From a virus, in the IMG/VR virus record IMGVR_UViG_3300032220_000952, positions 1-60,261 of that record: a stretch of DNA of 60,261 nt; one strand, 5' to 3'. Below, one piece after another: positions 18,263 to 51,115 of the stretch (the stretch's first letter is position 1; the number at the start of each line of letters is the position of its first letter). A program made the position numbers and the translations under genes. The notes under the pieces were generated by a model. That model had not been told where the DNA came from. It searched no databases and saw only the letters and a program-made list of their open reading frames with translations.

Positions 18263-18691
18263 TTACCAATCGTTTTTAGAACCAACTTTTACTAAATCCA
18301 CACTTTCTGAATAATAGCCGTTTGATGAACCATACCAACGAATATCTACATATCCTTTTATGGTTGCTAATTTGTAAAATGTCCAAGTGAACGAATCTTC
18401 ATAATCGTAATAGTTATCACCTTCTTCAAGTTTCTTCTTTTCCTTTTCAGCTAATTGTTCAGGAGTATGTTCACTTGAACTGTTTTCTTCTGCAACCAAA
18501 ATAGGGCTACCTACCAAATCATTTAAGTCACCATTGATGTCATCTATTGATACGCCTTCGCAACAATCTTGTCTGTGGTACATTTTGTATTCAGTTCCAT
18601 CATCAACAGTGAAAATGATTTCATCGTTGGCTTCGTTTTTTACTACGGCAGTTAATGTTTTGCCTAAAAGTTGTTCAATTCCGGTTTCCAT
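18263..18691 (-). CDS. DUF7448-like conserved protein
   Basis: This 142-residue protein has a beta-rich start, then [19 protein letters not shown] and D-L-V-G-S-P-I. I associate this order with a conserved phage and bacterial domain of unknown function (DUF7448). An acidic insert follows, and the end contains [12 protein letters not shown]. It has its own promoter at 18710-18740. Confidence 0.6.
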
Positions 18692-18709
18692 TTTACTTAT
18701 TTTTATTTA

Positions 18710-18740
18710 CAAATATACAAAATAATTTCTATATTTCCAA
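18710..18740 (-). promoter_or_regulatory. Bacteroidota-type promoter (best consensus match)
   Basis: TTG (18738-18740) precedes TATATTTG (18710-18717) by exactly 20 bases. The -7 element matches the TAnnTTTG consensus fully. It leaves a leader of about 15 bases before the ATG at 18691. Confidence 0.8.
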
Positions 18741-18823
18741 ATTTTACTTACACAAATACATCATATTCCTGGTGTATAAGTGAAGGAAAACTGGACAAAT
18801 AAACGAGTTATAAAACAGTTTAT

Positions 18824-19012
18824 TCACATTTTAATTTTACCACATTCAGTACATTCAAAATAATATACTGCTGGTCCACCTCTTCTCATATAATCATGTT
18901 CACAAACCGATTTTATAACACCAAATAAACTCAATAAAAGGTTGTGTGCTTCGTTTTCAGTTATTGTTCCCTGTTCAAGCTCTTTTCCTATTTTGATAAT
19001 TTGTTCTTTCAT
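18824..19012 (-). CDS. Small zinc-ribbon-like protein
   Basis: The ATG at 19012 is used; the longer in-frame start is TTG. The 62-residue protein has a helical N-terminus and a C-terminal C-E-H (near residue 41), then C-T-E-C-G-K-I-K-M at the end. This Cys/His set could bind one zinc. Function unknown. Confidence 0.55.
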   Translation of the reverse strand: MKEQIIKIGKELEQGTITENEAHNLLLSLFGVIKSVCEHDYMRRGGPAVYYFECTECGKIKM

Positions 19013-20475: not shown

Positions 20476-20765
20476 TCTGTTTTGTTTTTAAGTTGAATAG
20501 TTTCACTCCCATCATACTCATTGATAATAAAATCTTCACCTTCATCTACCCACACTACGACTAAATCTCCAACTCCACCTGTATAAACACCCGGATAAGT
20601 ATTTTCAACATACTCGTTTGCACTATCATAATCTTCCGATTCAACCAATTCTACTAACTTTGGGTCAAATATTGCCTCAAGAGGAGCACCCCAAGTATAA
20701 AATCCACTCCCAAATCCATATGAAATAAGAACTGCTACTTTACCATCTTTAATTACTTTGTTCAT
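20460..20765 (-). CDS. Hypothetical protein
   Basis: This 101-residue acidic beta-rich protein contains the Gly/aromatic-rich segment Y-G-F-G-S-G-F-Y-T-W-G near residue 16. No domain was recognised. The start overlaps the previous stop as ATGA (20762-20765), which suggests coupled translation. Confidence 0.55.
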   Translation of the reverse strand: MNKVIKDGKVAVLISYGFGSGFYTWGAPLEAIFDPKLVELVESEDYDSANEYVENTYPGVYTGGVGDLVVVWVDEGEDFIINEYDGSETIQLKNKTEWITA

Positions 20766-21076
20766 ACTTTGGTCAATTTATATTTTACACCTTCAATTAT
20801 GATTTCTTTGTTCTCACAAGGCGTGGGTCGGTGGTCTATGATTTCACCTCTTGAATTCTCATAATAGATTCTATTACCTTTAGAATCGTACTCCCACTTT
20901 GCCCATACTCCCGCTGAATTCTCAACGTAGATTTTATTGCCTTGAGAATCCCATTCATACTTTGCCCAATCACCATATAAATTCTCATAATAGATTGTTC
21001 TATCATTCTTGTTTTTGATTTCCAAGAAACCGTTGGTCTCAAAATCCCATTTGATTTGTTGTGCTATTGTTTTCAT
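20762..21076 (-). CDS. YD/RHS-like repeat protein
   Basis: This 104-residue protein contains about three tandem units of the type Y-E-N-x-x-G-x-W-A-K-x-E-x-D-S-x-G-N-x-I (residues about 27-80). The pattern resembles YD/RHS-type beta-hairpin repeats and is common in Bacteroidota and their phages. The remaining N- and C-terminal parts are short. Such repeats often mediate binding; no function is assigned. Confidence 0.6.
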   Translation of the reverse strand: MKTIAQQIKWDFETNGFLEIKNKNDRTIYYENLYGDWAKYEWDSQGNKIYVENSAGVWAKWEYDSKGNRIYYENSRGEIIDHRPTPCENKEIIIEGVKYKLTKV

Positions 21077-21080
21077 ACTT

Positions 21081-21737
21081 TCATTTTTTATTTTCTAATT
21101 CTTCTAAATAATCCTCAATATCTTTTGAGGTCATATATGTTTTATTAAAGTCAGGCTCAATTGCTTTGATTTGTTTAATAGTATCTACTTTTTTACCAGC
21201 TCTGTAATAATAATCCTCAATAGCATCTGCTAAGTCTTGAATATATTTTGGTGCAGCAACTGAGATTCTTAAATCATACCAAGACCATTTTGTTTTATAG
21301 TCTGTGAATGTTATTCCTTTGGTTAGTTTTCTATGCAAATTATGTAGTGTTCTATTACGAACTCTTACAATTGATTTATCATTACCAAATACCTGAAGAA
21401 ATCTAAGAAACCAACGAGGACACCACCAAGGTTTTGCTTCATAATCCATAGCTAAAACTAATGGGACCATAGCTTTATTATAGTATTTGTCATCAGGTAC
21501 AGAACCTAAATAACCATACTTTTGGGAAAAGTTTTTGGGAAAGAATATGAAACAAATATCACTCCACTTTAAATCACGAGTATAAATTATTCCTTTCTTT
21601 CTTCCTTTCCAAAATAGTAGAGATTGTCCAAAGTCTTTGACTTTATCAATAAGCGGACGATTGTCCTTAATGTAAAATTTACTTTTTTTCATATCAAAGG
21701 GGTCTGAATCGTATAAGTCAGGGTTAATTTGTGTCAT
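21081..21737 (-). CDS. Hypothetical protein
   Basis: This 218-residue basic protein is rich in Trp, Phe and Lys. It has a hydrophobic aromatic region (W-S-D-I-C-F-I-F-F) near residue 58 and a Trp-Trp-Cys-Pro motif near residue 104, and ends in a charged helix. No family was recognised. It is probably cytoplasmic or membrane-attached. Confidence 0.5.
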   Translation of the reverse strand: MTQINPDLYDSDPFDMKKSKFYIKDNRPLIDKVKDFGQSLLFWKGRKKGIIYTRDLKWSDICFIFFPKNFSQKYGYLGSVPDDKYYNKAMVPLVLAMDYEAKPWWCPRWFLRFLQVFGNDKSIVRVRNRTLHNLHRKLTKGITFTDYKTKWSWYDLRISVAAPKYIQDLADAIEDYYYRAGKKVDTIKQIKAIEPDFNKTYMTSKDIEDYLEELENKK

Positions 21738-23011: not shown

Positions 23012-23020
23012 CTTACATAG

Positions 23021-23051
23021 TAAAGATACGAAGAAAACCCCATATTTCCAA
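23021..23051 (-). promoter_or_regulatory. Bacteroidota-type promoter in a terminator-promoter cassette
   Basis: TTG (23049-23051) and TATCTTTA (23021-23028) are 20 bases apart. The flanking 100 bases, including a hairpin at 23104-23119, are closely repeated at 31867-31964. The -7 element matches TAnnTTT(G/A). Confidence 0.75.
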
Positions 23052-23103
23052 GCTTTCTATATTAAATTTGCGTTAAATTTATCCACATTTTTTGTGGAAA
23101 AGT

Positions 23104-23119
23104 GTCCAATAAATTGGAC
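23104..23119 (-). terminator. Short perfect palindrome after the Nudix gene, possible terminator or operator
   Basis: GTCCAAT and ATTGGAC are separated by two bases. It follows the Nudix stop within 6 bases and is followed on the minus strand by ACTTTTCC and a second small hairpin (TCCACA/TGTGGA, near 23084-23100). A twin lies at 31949-31964. It fits a weak terminator but also a protein-binding palindrome. Confidence 0.5.
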
Positions 23120-23124
23120 AGTTC

Positions 23125-25704: not shown

Positions 25705-27946
<2,242 letters not shown>

Positions 27947-30277: not shown

Positions 30278-30360
30278 TAGTCAGGACAGGATTCGAACCT
30301 GTATTAGGGCTTACGACCTATGATACTCTATTTACTACAACGCCATGTAGCCACCTGACT
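30278..30360 (-). tRNA. tRNA-like RNA 1 (anticodon not assignable)
   Basis: On the minus strand a perfect 7-bp acceptor stem (AGTCAGG with CCTGACT), a discriminator A, a T-arm ACAGG-TTCGAAT-CCTGT and a D-arm (GCTAC/GTAGT around an 8-base loop containing GG) are clear. The middle (31 bases) does not fold as a standard 5-bp/7-base anticodon arm; the best fit is TAGG/CCTA with an 8-base loop. The CCA end is not encoded. It could be a divergent tRNA, a tRNA with an unusual anticodon arm, or a non-decoding tRNA mimic. Confidence 0.55.
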
Positions 30361-30594: not shown

Positions 30595-30716
30595 TAGTCA
30601 GTACAGGATTCGAACCTGCGGAGAACGGCTTGATAGTTTCTGCGCGAGGGCTACTTAATTCGCCACCCCTCAATCTTTGTTCTCAATTACGCTGCGGATA
30701 CCACCGCCACCTGACT
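30595..30716 (-). ncRNA. tRNA-like RNA 2, 122 bases, expanded central arm
   Basis: The ends share the acceptor (AGTCAG with CTGACT; seventh pair mismatched) and the T-arm CAGG-TTCGAAT-CCTG with tRNA-like RNA 1. A short D-like hairpin follows (GCGG-TGGTAT-CCGC). The rest is not an anticodon arm: a 6-bp stem GAGAAC/GTTCTC encloses about 53 bases, including a GAGGG/CCCTC hairpin. It is 40 bases longer than a tRNA and far shorter than tmRNA. It may be a regulatory or degraded tRNA relative. Confidence 0.5.
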
Positions 30717-30810
30717 GTGTTGAGGATGAGAAGTCCTCTGTGTTGTAAGTGTTTTCATAATTACTTCTAATTATCTACATTCCTTTCTCAAGGGAACAAC
30801 ACAATGTTGA

Positions 30811-31021: not shown

Positions 31022-31225
31022 TCAGGCGTGCTTTTCTTCCCAAATTCGTAAAGTTTCATCAATTTCTTCGGGGGAAAGTTTATCTCCCAATTCTTCTAAT
31101 TCGTTAGCAACATCATCAGAACACATACCATAGGTCTCAATCATACGATTAGCCTTCTCTTGGAGGTGAATAAATCGGCGAACATTTTCGTTTCTCACAA
31201 TAATGGGGGTTAGTATCTCAATCAT
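31022..31225 (-). CDS. Small helical protein with own promoter
   Basis: The ATG at 31225 gives 67 residues, starting M-I-E-I-L-T-P-I-I-V-R. It is helical and acidic. The start is chosen because a TTG-N20-TATATTTA promoter (31233-31263) would overlap a longer frame. Its -7 element ends 8 bases before this ATG. The presence of a private promoter suggests an early, separately needed gene. Function unknown. Confidence 0.6.
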   Translation of the reverse strand: MIEILTPIIVRNENVRRFIHLQEKANRMIETYGMCSDDVANELEELGDKLSPEEIDETLRIWEEKHA

Positions 31226-31232
31226 TACATAG

Positions 31233-31263
31233 TAAATATACAACAGAAAAATGGAGTTTCCAA
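31233..31263 (-). promoter_or_regulatory. Bacteroidota-type promoter
   Basis: TTG (31261-31263) and TATATTTA (31233-31240) are 20 bases apart. The upstream stretch resembles the promoters at 22545 and 23021, including TTTAACATACAAAG. Confidence 0.75.
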
Positions 31264-31412
31264 ACTTTGTATGTTAAATTTAGGTTAAATTTTTAACTTA
31301 ATTAAGCCATCATCAGTTCATTTTTAATTTTATGTATTTTATTATATTTTTAAATTATACCATAGGAAATCCGGCGGAGGAAATAGTTGTTGATGGTAGT
31401 GGTTTAGAATTT

Positions 31413-31835: not shown

Positions 31836-31866
31836 AATATAGGGGGGGTTTTTTTATCTTACATAG

Positions 31867-31897
31867 TAAAGATACGAAGAAAAACCCATATTTCCAA
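31867..31897 (-). promoter_or_regulatory. Bacteroidota-type promoter in a terminator-promoter cassette
   Basis: TTG (31895-31897) and TATCTTTA (31867-31874) are 20 bases apart. Flanking bases, including the palindrome at 31949-31964, repeat the region at 23021-23119 with few differences. Confidence 0.75.
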
Positions 31898-31948
31898 ACT
31901 TTTGAGATTAAAATTCCATTAAAGTTATCCACATTTGTGTGAAAAAGT

Positions 31949-31964
31949 GTCCAATTTATTGGAC
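31949..31964 (-). terminator. Palindrome GTCCAAT-TT-ATTGGAC, likely terminator or operator
   Basis: Seven-base arms are separated by two bases. On the minus strand it is followed by ACTTTTTC, and it lies within 8 bases of the stop at 31972. The twin copy lies at 23104-23119. Confidence 0.5.
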
Positions 31965-31971
31965 AGTTGGG

Positions 31972-41723: not shown

Positions 41724-43625
41724 TTAGAATTTAAATATTTTGTAAACTTTTTGCTTTTCGTTAGTGGTTAATCTTACAAAGTAAAAACCTGTCTTTAAAT
41801 CACTAACATTGATTTTTTTCGTAACTACTTCATTTTGATTTACGAACTCTTTTTCTGAGTAAAAGTTTTTACCCATATAATCGTAGATTTCGTATGTTAA
41901 ATATCCCCAATTGGTTTGGAAATAATCTATGTTTAAGTTGTCTTGAACTGGATTTGGATATATTCTAAACCCATTTACTAATTCGTTTACAAGTTCTCTT
42001 GCTCTTCTACCATTAACCACAGTCGCATCTACAGGTGAAGGGATGATATTCAAATCTTCTGCTTTTTCATTTCCCGCTGCTTTGTTGGTTATTTTAATAG
42101 GTGATTGTTCCCAGTTTTGATTTAAGATTTCAAATTGGAAATTAAACATTTGAGTTGGGTTGGTGATAAGTGATGGAGACATTTTAGATTCGTGTCCACC
42201 CCAAGTTATCTCACCAGGTTTTGCTGAAATGAATGCGTTCCAAGCACTTGCTTCAGGCCCTACATTAACATTTGTAAACCTAAAAATGGTTGGGTCATAC
42301 TTTAAAGATAATTGTGCTGCACCTACTTTGTTTCCATGTGTGATAAAGGTAACAGCAACATTTACTGAATTATCATCTGAAATAGTTAATTTAGGTATTC
42401 TAAATTGGACTGAATCTTCAATGTTTTGATAGATTGTTCCTTCATCCAATACATAAGATGTTCCGCTTGTTGGGTTGTTTACTCTTTGAATTTGGAATGA
42501 TAAGTTGTTTAATCCAGTATTTGTTACATCCCCTAAAACATACCCTCTATAACTTAAGGAACTTAATCCATTCAATGGAACATCAATGTTAGTTGTACCT
42601 ATGATATTGGTTTGGAATACATCTGGGTTAGCCATAATCGTAGCGTATTCTCCTGCGGTATAGTACCTAACATTGTATTCATTTGCTACTACAGGAGACC
42701 AAGTAGTTCTACCCGTTGCTAAACGATTAAATATTAAATAAGCATCGGATACGGATAATGTGTTATTGCGGTTTACATCACCTTGTTGGAACTCGTATGC
42801 TTGGGCAGTATCAGCGTAAATACTCATATCGGATAATCTATAAGCATCGGTAATGTTGATAGCTGAATTATCAGATAGGGTATCTAAATTTGATACTAAC
42901 TTAACATTGTAGAAAGATGTATCGTATGGGATTTTAATTCCTGCTAAACCAGCAGCGTCTGTTACAAATCTTTCACCACGACTATAAGTTTGTGTGGTTT
43001 TCAGTTTGTAATCAAATGCGAATGGCATATCCGGCGCAGGTGTTCCATCTACATTTAATAAGGTTACGGGGAACACCAAAGTATCCATTTGGAATCTACC
43101 TCCGTAGCTGTAAACACCTAAAGCGTTATCAACACCAGCGGTTGTGGTTGCTATGTTTGTGTAGGCAGGGGTAGATTGAACTTCTAATGAATCAACGGAA
43201 GAAGGATTGAACCCAACTGCGTGTGGGAGTAAAACTTCAAATACAGCACCATCAGGCCAATCAAATACTGCTGATGTCCCAGTATAGATTGCCGTTGCGT
43301 TTACCCAACCAGGTTGACTATAGTAAGAACCATACTTTGTATTAATTCCAGTTGCGGTTGGTCCCCATTTTACAATAGGTTGTTTGAACGATGTGGTGGG
43401 GTAGAAAAATCTAACCTGAAAACCAGCGTAGTTTGTAGCAGTTGGATTGTGATAGTGTAAATATACTACAGTAGTGTCCTCTAATACACTACCCAATGTA
43501 AACACCGTATCAATCAAAAAGTGTGGTGAGTTTGAGTTTGGCGATACTAATACTTCCGTTCTTCCGTTTTGAGCAAATACTCCAAATGGTAAAAGTAACG
43601 CAAATAATAAAATAAGTTTTTTCAT
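41724..43625 (-). CDS. T9SS-secreted protein with dockerin-like repeats and cohesin-like domain
   Basis: This 633-residue exported protein begins M-K-K-L-I-L-L-F-A-L-L-L-P-F-G-V-F-A-Q (signal peptide). Two dockerin-like repeats lie at 252-269 and 282-305 (S-A-I-N-I-T-D-A-Y, then R-N-N-T-L-S-V-S-D-A-Y), and a cohesin-like domain at about 410-505 (V-G-A-A-Q-L-S-L-K-Y-D-P, then G-E-I-T-W-G-G). The end (about 555-633) has F-R-I-Y-P-N-P-V, then L-K-T-G-F-Y-F-V-R-L, the type A sorting domain of the type IX secretion system. The host T9SS would export and may anchor it. Confidence 0.85.
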   Translation of the reverse strand: MKKLILLFALLLPFGVFAQNGRTEVLVSPNSNSPHFLIDTVFTLGSVLEDTTVVYLHYHNPTATNYAGFQVRFFYPTTSFKQPIVKWGPTATGINTKYGSYYSQPGWVNATAIYTGTSAVFDWPDGAVFEVLLPHAVGFNPSSVDSLEVQSTPAYTNIATTTAGVDNALGVYSYGGRFQMDTLVFPVTLLNVDGTPAPDMPFAFDYKLKTTQTYSRGERFVTDAAGLAGIKIPYDTSFYNVKLVSNLDTLSDNSAINITDAYRLSDMSIYADTAQAYEFQQGDVNRNNTLSVSDAYLIFNRLATGRTTWSPVVANEYNVRYYTAGEYATIMANPDVFQTNIIGTTNIDVPLNGLSSLSYRGYVLGDVTNTGLNNLSFQIQRVNNPTSGTSYVLDEGTIYQNIEDSVQFRIPKLTISDDNSVNVAVTFITHGNKVGAAQLSLKYDPTIFRFTNVNVGPEASAWNAFISAKPGEITWGGHESKMSPSLITNPTQMFNFQFEILNQNWEQSPIKITNKAAGNEKAEDLNIIPSPVDATVVNGRRARELVNELVNGFRIYPNPVQDNLNIDYFQTNWGYLTYEIYDYMGKNFYSEKEFVNQNEVVTKKINVSDLKTGFYFVRLTTNEKQKVYKIFKF

Positions 43626-49762: not shown

Positions 49763-51115
49763 TTAATTGGATATTAAGTTATTATAATTATGATTTTTTC
49801 CATGAAAGCCAAATGTTAATATACCATTATTTTCCGGTATTGGTGTTTCAAAAGAAAATTTTGATGCAACATCAATTGGTGCAAATTTACAACCATTTGC
49901 TTCATAAATGTGCTTGTTATGACAACAAAAAAATCCATCTTCGTTGTAAAACCCAAAGTAAGACTTCCACTCAAGATCCAATTCACTAGCTAATCTAAGT
50001 AGTTTTTTACTTCGCAGTGAAAAACCACCATTTCCAACTCGTTGTAAGTTACCATAACTATCTTTAAATGAAAAATCATCTTCAGGTATTGGCCACGGAG
50101 CTCCTATATAATCATATTCTAAAAACAAACCATCCCATTGTTCTGCATTAACAACAAACCCATCCTCTTGTATAATAAGGGCAAATTCAGTATTAATATA
50201 TTTATGTAATTCATATACAATAAATTTACTGTATTCATCGGTATTTAGTATGGGGTTAATTTTAATAACATCTATATTATCTAACACACATTCTTCACTT
50301 GTTAATAATAAAACATTTTTAAATTCAATATTTTTTACAGAATATTGTAACGCTTTTATAGCACGTTGCACATTAACAGATGTAACACATACTAGTGTAA
50401 CATTTTCTAAATACTTTTTGTATTTTTTAGTAATGTAGTGCACTTCTTTTTCTATAATTTTATCATTAACTATTGTATTTGTTGTTCTGTTAGGATGTTC
50501 TCTATTTACAACAGTAACATAGTTACAAATACTTGGTAGTCCAAATTTATCATACAAACGTTTATAATAGTCAACATCAACCAACCATATTAGATTTTCA
50601 TCAAACTCCAAAACATTTTTATTTTTAAACATTAAAACACTGGGTGAACTAATAGTATTTTCACCATAATGAATATTATCGTGATATTTAGGATATACTG
50701 TGTTGTAAAAATTTATTCCATCATTGGAATGACAGCAAGCTGTCACCATCCAATGGTTGTAATTTCCTACAAAATGATATATTTGATAGTATAAACTGTT
50801 TTCATCTACCAAAAAATCATCTTGACAAAGTATTTTTATAACATCACCCGAAGCCTTTGATATTACATTGTTTAAATTGGGCGCAAGTGTTCCGTATTTT
50901 TTTTGATAAAAAAAGTGTTTTATATTTAATTTATTAGACCATTCATAACACAAATTTTTTATTTCATCATTTTTACTATGATCTGAAATAATAATTTCAA
51001 AGTTAGTGTAAGTTTGTTTGGCTAATTTTTGAAAAGAAAAATCTAAATATTTTTTTCCGTTTCCACCCATTTCATATGTTGGTATGCATACACTAATTAA
51101 AGGTAAATTATTCAT
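49763..51115 (-). CDS. Two-domain GT2 / DUF5672 glycosyltransferase
   Basis: The 450-residue protein has an N-terminal GT2 domain (P-L-I-S-V-C-I-P-T-Y-E-M, then S-D-H-S-K-N-D and C-Q-D-D-F-L-V, about 1-225). The C-terminal part (about 238-440) matches DUF5672: L-V-C-V-T-S-V-N-V-Q-R-A, I-I-Q-E-D-G-F-V-V-N, Y-D-Y-I-G-A-P-W and V-G-N-G-G-F-S-L-R-S. A fusion that adds two sugars in turn is likely. Confidence 0.85.
   Translation of the reverse strand: MNNLPLISVCIPTYEMGGNGKKYLDFSFQKLAKQTYTNFEIIISDHSKNDEIKNLCYEWSNKLNIKHFFYQKKYGTLAPNLNNVISKASGDVIKILCQDDFLVDENSLYYQIYHFVGNYNHWMVTACCHSNDGINFYNTVYPKYHDNIHYGENTISSPSVLMFKNKNVLEFDENLIWLVDVDYYKRLYDKFGLPSICNYVTVVNREHPNRTTNTIVNDKIIEKEVHYITKKYKKYLENVTLVCVTSVNVQRAIKALQYSVKNIEFKNVLLLTSEECVLDNIDVIKINPILNTDEYSKFIVYELHKYINTEFALIIQEDGFVVNAEQWDGLFLEYDYIGAPWPIPEDDFSFKDSYGNLQRVGNGGFSLRSKKLLRLASELDLEWKSYFGFYNEDGFFCCHNKHIYEANGCKFAPIDVASKFSFETPIPENNGILTFGFHGKNHNYNNLISN

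What the first reader, a model, noticed from the sequence alone, without database searches (positions are those of the whole stretch)
30595..30716. 122-base tRNA-like RNA with an expanded central arm
Seen: it shares the acceptor start (AGTCAGGTGGC) and the T-arm with the RNA at 30278, so the two are likely duplicates. About 75 bases replace the anticodon region, held by GAGAAC/GTTCTC. It is too short for tmRNA and for a typical group I intron. It may be a new class of phage tRNA mimic.
Basis: partly seen in the sequence, partly recalled or inferred. Interest (0 to 1): 0.75.

Follow-up and report, generated by a model that had tools for sequence, protein, structure and literature searches.

The report
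Phage tRNA-bodied RNAs carrying swappable cargo
The odd 122-base RNA belongs to a large and, as far as I could find, undescribed family in viruses of Bacteroidota bacteria, in which a tRNA-shaped frame carries a different folded RNA 'cargo' in place of the decoding arm, and the cargo is exchanged between viruses.

Summary
On the minus strand, window 30595-30716 folds as a tRNA acceptor stem, D-arm and T-arm, with about 73 nt of unrelated sequence replacing the anticodon and variable arms. It is not an oddity or a local duplication. It is one of at least 475 distinct RNAs (316 unrelated cargo groups) with near-constant tRNA ends, in more than 200 IMG/VR contigs. I found none in cultured phages, plasmids or 394 of 395 sampled Bacteroidota genomes. 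Compensatory changes support the tRNA fold: the 15-48 Levitt pair, D-stem, T-stem, and whole acceptors rewritten in step. Leader (U-1) and trailer (C74) match 826 ordinary tRNAs of the same loci, so shared tRNA maturation is likely. Some copies sit inside phage tRNA arrays. Cargo is more structured than chance and conserved within groups. It is swapped as a cassette: 46 of 59 flank-matched pairs carry different cargo. A second scaffold with its own variable insert lies just upstream of the finding. Most likely these are trans-acting phage effector RNAs displayed on a tRNA scaffold. Maturation, stability and effector function are inferred; targets are unknown. I found no antisense to own phage genomes or rRNA.

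The parts
30595..30716 (-). the RNA of the finding: tRNA body with 73-nt cargo (A1 at 30716, A73 at 30595; encoded C74 at 30594)
   Evidence: sequence; same RNA in L096, L225 and the 219-kb phage G004
30710..30716 (-). acceptor stem 5' strand AGTCAGG
   Evidence: pairs with 30596-30602; dominant acceptor of the family
30596..30602 (-). acceptor stem 3' strand ACTGACT (CCTGACT in the relatives), followed by A73
30694..30707 (-). D-arm GCGG-TGGTAT-CCGC; G15 with C48 is the covarying Levitt pair
   Evidence: 15-48 pair: A-T 257, G-C 10 of 310
30621..30693 (-). cargo that replaces anticodon and variable arms; closed by GAGAAC (30679-30684) and GTTCTC (30621-30626), inner hairpin GAGGG...CCCTC
   Evidence: about 98% identical in 4 phage contigs; unrelated to the other cargo groups
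30603..30619 (-). T-arm GCAGG-TTCGAAT-CCTGT
   Evidence: canonical T-loop; T-stem covaries in the family
30278..30360 (-). second family member, 83 nt, cargo around ATCATAGGTCGTAAGCCCTA; cargo found in 15 other virus contigs
   Evidence: D-stem CTAC/GTAG versus CGAC/GTCG; in G008 only such RNAs are alike at the DNA level
30722..30802 (-). different RNA scaffold directly upstream: stem GTGTTG/CAACAC, hairpin TTCC-cTTGAGAAa-GGAA, variable insert, hairpin GAGG-acTTCTCAt-CCTC; loops complementary (kissing loop)
   Evidence: compensatory loop change in L009 (TTGATAA / TTATCA)

Best explanation
The RNA is one cassette of a phage family of tRNA-scaffolded cargo RNAs. Supported by sequence: a tRNA elbow (acceptor, D-arm, T-arm, 15-48 pair) is kept while the anticodon and variable arms are replaced by one of hundreds of unrelated, structured cargo domains; the genes lie alone or inside phage tRNA arrays; cargo is exchanged at constant sites. 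Inferred from signals shared with the same phages' tRNAs: host RNase P cuts at A1, the 3' end is formed at C74 and CCA-completed, and the tRNA body gives defined ends and resistance to decay in a host group that, from general knowledge, lacks Hfq. Inferred, least certain: after maturation the cargo acts in trans as an effector RNA during infection, most plausibly against rapidly changing host targets such as defence proteins or host RNAs, which would explain its diversity and swapping.
For: Family size and constant ends. Phage-specific: versus 10, 18, 66. tRNA fold by covariation: 15-48 pair, D-stem, T-stem, entire acceptors replaced in step such as ATTAAAG/CTTTAAT and ACCAAAG/CTTTGGT. Same maturation signals as 826 ordinary tRNAs: U-1 82% versus 69%, C74 98.7% versus 98.2%. 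Located in tRNA arrays; some copies pass Rfam's tRNA cut-off. Cargo structured: mean MFE z -0.70 over 231 groups; two-sided compensatory changes 17 versus 6.1 shuffled, broken pairs 17 versus 32.6. Cassette exchange: 46 of 59 flank-matched pairs differ in cargo, 375 of 411 same-cargo pairs share no flank; one site with 7 copies, 7 cargos in 6 contigs. Some copies have their own Bacteroidota -7 box: 29 versus 3.5 expected.
Against: No expression data exist here. No target was found: no excess antisense to own phage genome, no sense or antisense match to a Bacteroidota rRNA operon, no shared cargo motif. No partner gene recurs. This RNA's own cargo stem shows no variation, so its structure is not confirmed by covariation.
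Confidence: 0.6

Rival explanations
1. tRNA decoys: the tRNA body is the active part, soaking up or blocking host anti-phage nucleases, synthetases or modification enzymes that act on tRNA; the replaced anticodon arm makes it uncleavable and varies freely.
For: Keeps the elbow and acceptor but no anticodon; sits among tRNA genes that phages use against tRNA-cutting defences. tRNA-cleaving defences such as PARIS and Septu are documented (PMC12409363, PMC13096335, abstracts seen).
Against: Does not explain why cargo is conserved and structured within groups or why a second, non-tRNA scaffold carries variable inserts in the same places.
Confidence: 0.2
2. Processing punctuation: tRNA ends serve only as RNase P and 3' cleavage sites that cut phage polycistronic messages; the cargo is a spacer.
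For: Co-directional between genes (182 same-strand versus 13 opposite); leader and trailer like tRNA.
Against: A spacer would not keep 98% identity or compensatory base pairs; ordinary tRNAs would suffice; up to 11 in one locus among real tRNAs.
Confidence: 0.08
3. A self-propagating RNA-gene cassette: constant ends are homology for recombination between phages and the cargo brings little benefit.
For: Cassette exchange at fixed sites.
Against: Ends covary as RNA helices, which DNA homology alone would not require; no recombinase recurs nearby.
Confidence: 0.08
4. Ordinary tRNA with an intron, or a decayed tRNA.
For: ARAGORN calls some members tRNA with scattered anticodons.
Against: Members down to 67 nt; no half anticodon arm beside the insert; constant ends with compensatory change; 316 cargo groups.
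Confidence: 0.02
5. A tmRNA-like RNA that enters the ribosome.
For: tmRNA also replaces the anticodon arm of a tRNA-like domain.
Against: No tmRNA match at cut-off in Rfam; the only sub-threshold hit, 9.2 bits against a gathering score of 84, is to the other RNA; 67-150 nt leaves no tag reading frame plus pseudoknots; acceptor is U3-A70, not the alanine G3-U70; phage G004 has a separate full-size tmRNA.
Confidence: 0.02

Closest known systems
tmRNA (SsrA) tRNA-like domain
   Same: tRNA acceptor, D-like and T arms with the anticodon arm replaced by another functional RNA
   Different: tmRNA is one conserved gene with reading frame and pseudoknots and alanine identity; here hundreds of unrelated short cargos, several per phage
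Pseudo-tRNA tRNAOther of Bacillus cereus (PMC3399842)
   Same: tRNA-like gene on a mobile region that does not serve translation (abstract)
   Different: single element; no swappable cargo known
Engineered 'tRNA scaffold' for recombinant RNA (general knowledge)
   Same: a foreign RNA replaces the anticodon arm and the tRNA body protects and matures it
   Different: man-made; this would be a natural counterpart
Ordinary phage tRNA arrays (PMC6409571)
   Same: same loci, strand, leader and trailer signals
   Different: no anticodon arm; acceptor AGTCAGG shared by most members whatever their cargo
Theta (HDV-like) ribozymes beside phage tRNAs (PMC10879173)
   Same: non-coding RNA next to tRNAs of Bacteroidota phages
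   Different: self-cleaving ribozymes proposed for tRNA 3' processing; no Rfam ribozyme match here

Membership tests
tRNA (RF00005) | paired acceptor, D-arm, T-arm with canonical T-loop | tested here: met
tRNA (RF00005) | anticodon arm with 5-bp stem and 7-nt loop (U33) | tested here: not met
   no such arm in either window RNA; ARAGORN finds 0 tRNAs in the window
tRNA (RF00005) | score above the Rfam gathering cut-off | tested here: not met
   finding not reported; about a dozen other members pass
tRNA (RF00005) | aminoacylation | not testable with these tools
   A73 and Leu-type D-arm are suggestive only (307 of 475)
tmRNA | Rfam tmRNA model, tag reading frame, alanine G3-U70 | tested here: not met
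   U3-A70; no tmRNA model matches the finding
group I intron in a tRNA | exons that join to a normal anticodon arm; intron of about 200 nt or more | tested here: not met
   cargo mostly under 100 nt, no flanking half-arms
tRNA-bodied cargo RNA family (this work) | constant tRNA ends plus unrelated structured middle | tested here: met
tRNA-bodied cargo RNA family (this work) | tRNA-type leader (U-1) and encoded C74 | tested here: inconclusive
   family-wide 82% and 98.7%; the finding has C at -1 (30717) and C74 at 30594
HDV-like/theta, hammerhead and other catalogued ribozymes | match to an Rfam ribozyme model | tested here: not met

The most novel reading that the evidence does not exclude
Phages of Bacteroidota carry an interchangeable arsenal of effector RNAs, each displayed on a constant tRNA frame (and on a second kissing-loop frame), swapped between phages as cassettes to counter host defences or take over host RNAs in bacteria without Hfq.
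Probability: 0.4. Interest if true: 0.95.

Novelty: categorically new. Interest (0 to 1): 0.85.

Why it matters
It would be a natural tRNA scaffold: a constant, host-matured RNA frame with hundreds of exchangeable functional domains, common in environmental virus contigs yet missed by tRNA finders and Rfam. It makes the role of non-coding 'dark' stretches in phage tRNA arrays directly testable and offers hundreds of natural structured RNAs of unknown target.

Tried and rejected
Antisense of cargo to own phage genome: 11.44 versus 11.51 nt in shuffles. Sense or antisense to a Bacteroidota rRNA operon: no excess. Common cargo motif: only D-arm and T-loop remnants. A universal stem closing the cargo: weak, 1.9 sd. 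Linked protein family: none; the commonest neighbour families occur in 13 of 196 loci. Cargo shared between the two scaffolds: only short marginal matches. Rfam: tRNA only. I first took the acceptor sequence to be invariant; the unbiased set shows it is dominant (about three quarters), with compensated alternatives.

Full report
WHAT IS THERE. The window is a 60,261-base virus record. The finding is on the minus strand and reads, 5' to 3': AGTCAGG-TG-GCGG-TGGTAT-CCGC-[AGCGTAATT GAGAAC AAAGATTGAGGGGTGGCGAATTAAGTAGCCCTCGCGCAGAAACTATCAAGCC GTTCTC]-C-GCAGG-TTCGAAT-CCTGT-ACTGACT-A. It lies between co-directional genes, with a second such RNA at 30278-30360. ARAGORN and Rfam report neither. The host is very probably a Bacteroidota: the window encodes a type IX secretion tail domain, and a terminase from a related locus matches almost only Bacteroides, Flavobacterium and similar phages.

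A FAMILY, NOT AN ODDITY. It was not found in 50,697 phage records or in plasmids at the sensitivity used. A finder based on tRNA geometry collected 475 distinct RNAs from 3.66 Mb with 4 hits in reversed sequence. They are 67 nt or longer and the middles fall into 316 groups, 230 of them singletons (Chao1 about 825). The finding's own RNA recurs in L096, in L225 and in a 219-kb phage with an almost unchanged middle. The second window RNA has its middle in 15 other virus contigs; with G008 the window shares no DNA similarity except such RNAs.

IT FOLDS AND MATURES LIKE A tRNA (fold supported by covariation; maturation inferred). Position 15 covaries with position 48 (A-T 257, G-C 10 of 310); the finding is of the G-C type. 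D-stems and T-stems change in step. In loci fetched without using the acceptor, most non-tRNA structures have AGTCAGG or a one-base variant, and the rest have wholly rewritten but still complementary acceptors. The base before the RNA is U in 82% and C74 is encoded in 98.7%; 826 ordinary tRNAs of the same loci show 69% and 98.2%. The finding itself has C at -1. Members lie within arrays of real tRNAs in G003 and G007, and about a dozen members pass Rfam's tRNA cut-off. A minority have their own Bacteroidota-type promoter just upstream (29 versus 3.5 expected).

THE CARGO IS SELECTED AND EXCHANGED. Middles fold better than shuffles (mean z -0.70 over 231 groups) and within groups keep pairs through two-sided changes (17 versus 6.1 shuffled; broken 17 versus 32.6; example). 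These controls do not correct for relatedness. Among pairs of copies with both flanks homologous, 46 of 59 carry different cargo; among same-cargo pairs in different loci, 375 of 411 share no flank. A few of the flank-matched pairs are neighbours in one locus rather than orthologous sites. The clearest case is one site between two genes that holds seven different cargos in six contigs. This is cassette exchange.

A SECOND SCAFFOLD. The two hairpin loops are complementary; L009 changes both in step. Of the 81 loci fetched by this pattern alone that gave a full element, 43 also hold a tRNA-bodied RNA.

HOW IT MIGHT WORK. Constant, tRNA-matured ends and a swappable structured core are what one expects of a display scaffold for effector RNAs. 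The exchange of cargo points to an arms race. This last step is inference: searches for antisense targets in own genomes, for rRNA mimicry or antisense, for shared motifs and for partner genes found nothing, so targets are probably host molecules not present in these data. Scaffold-as-decoy is the main rival.

LIMITS. There are no expression data. The pattern searches favour AGTCAGG ends; correct for this in part. The 30595-30716 cargo stem has no covariation of its own. The literature search covers only open-licence papers.

Noticed in passing
window 30722-30802 (minus); L237, L072, L171, L222 and others: Second RNA scaffold with kissing loops and a variable insert, widespread in virus contigs and often directly 5' of a tRNA-bodied RNA.
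   Followed up: partly
L325 982-1133, L346 2090-2242, L315 9644-9798: A separate tRNA-bodied RNA of about 150 nt with acceptor GGTTCTA (or GTCCGTA) and a conserved core ACTCCTTAATACTAGGATCGGAG.
   Followed up: no
L164, L070, L090, L139 and relatives; L222 1553-1643; L083 11140-11229: Cargo that itself contains a canonical T-arm hairpin (e.g. TCGG-TTCGAGT-CCGA), giving an RNA with two T-arms.
   Followed up: no
G004 50202-50333 (L280 10202-10333): Member whose Leu-type D-arm is replaced by a GTAGCTCAGTTGGTTAGAGC-type D-arm while acceptor AGTCAGG is kept.
   Followed up: no
window 31225-31292, 31848-31968, 23012-23123: Intergenic element repeated more than ten times in related phage G007; looks like a shared promoter region.
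   Followed up: no
window 20762-21083 and 18685-18824: Sequences with many dispersed diverged copies in the 219-kb phage G004.
   Followed up: no
window 25705-27312 (minus) and 41724-43625 (minus): Phage-encoded GroEL and a protein with cohesin and type IX secretion sorting domains.
   Followed up: no
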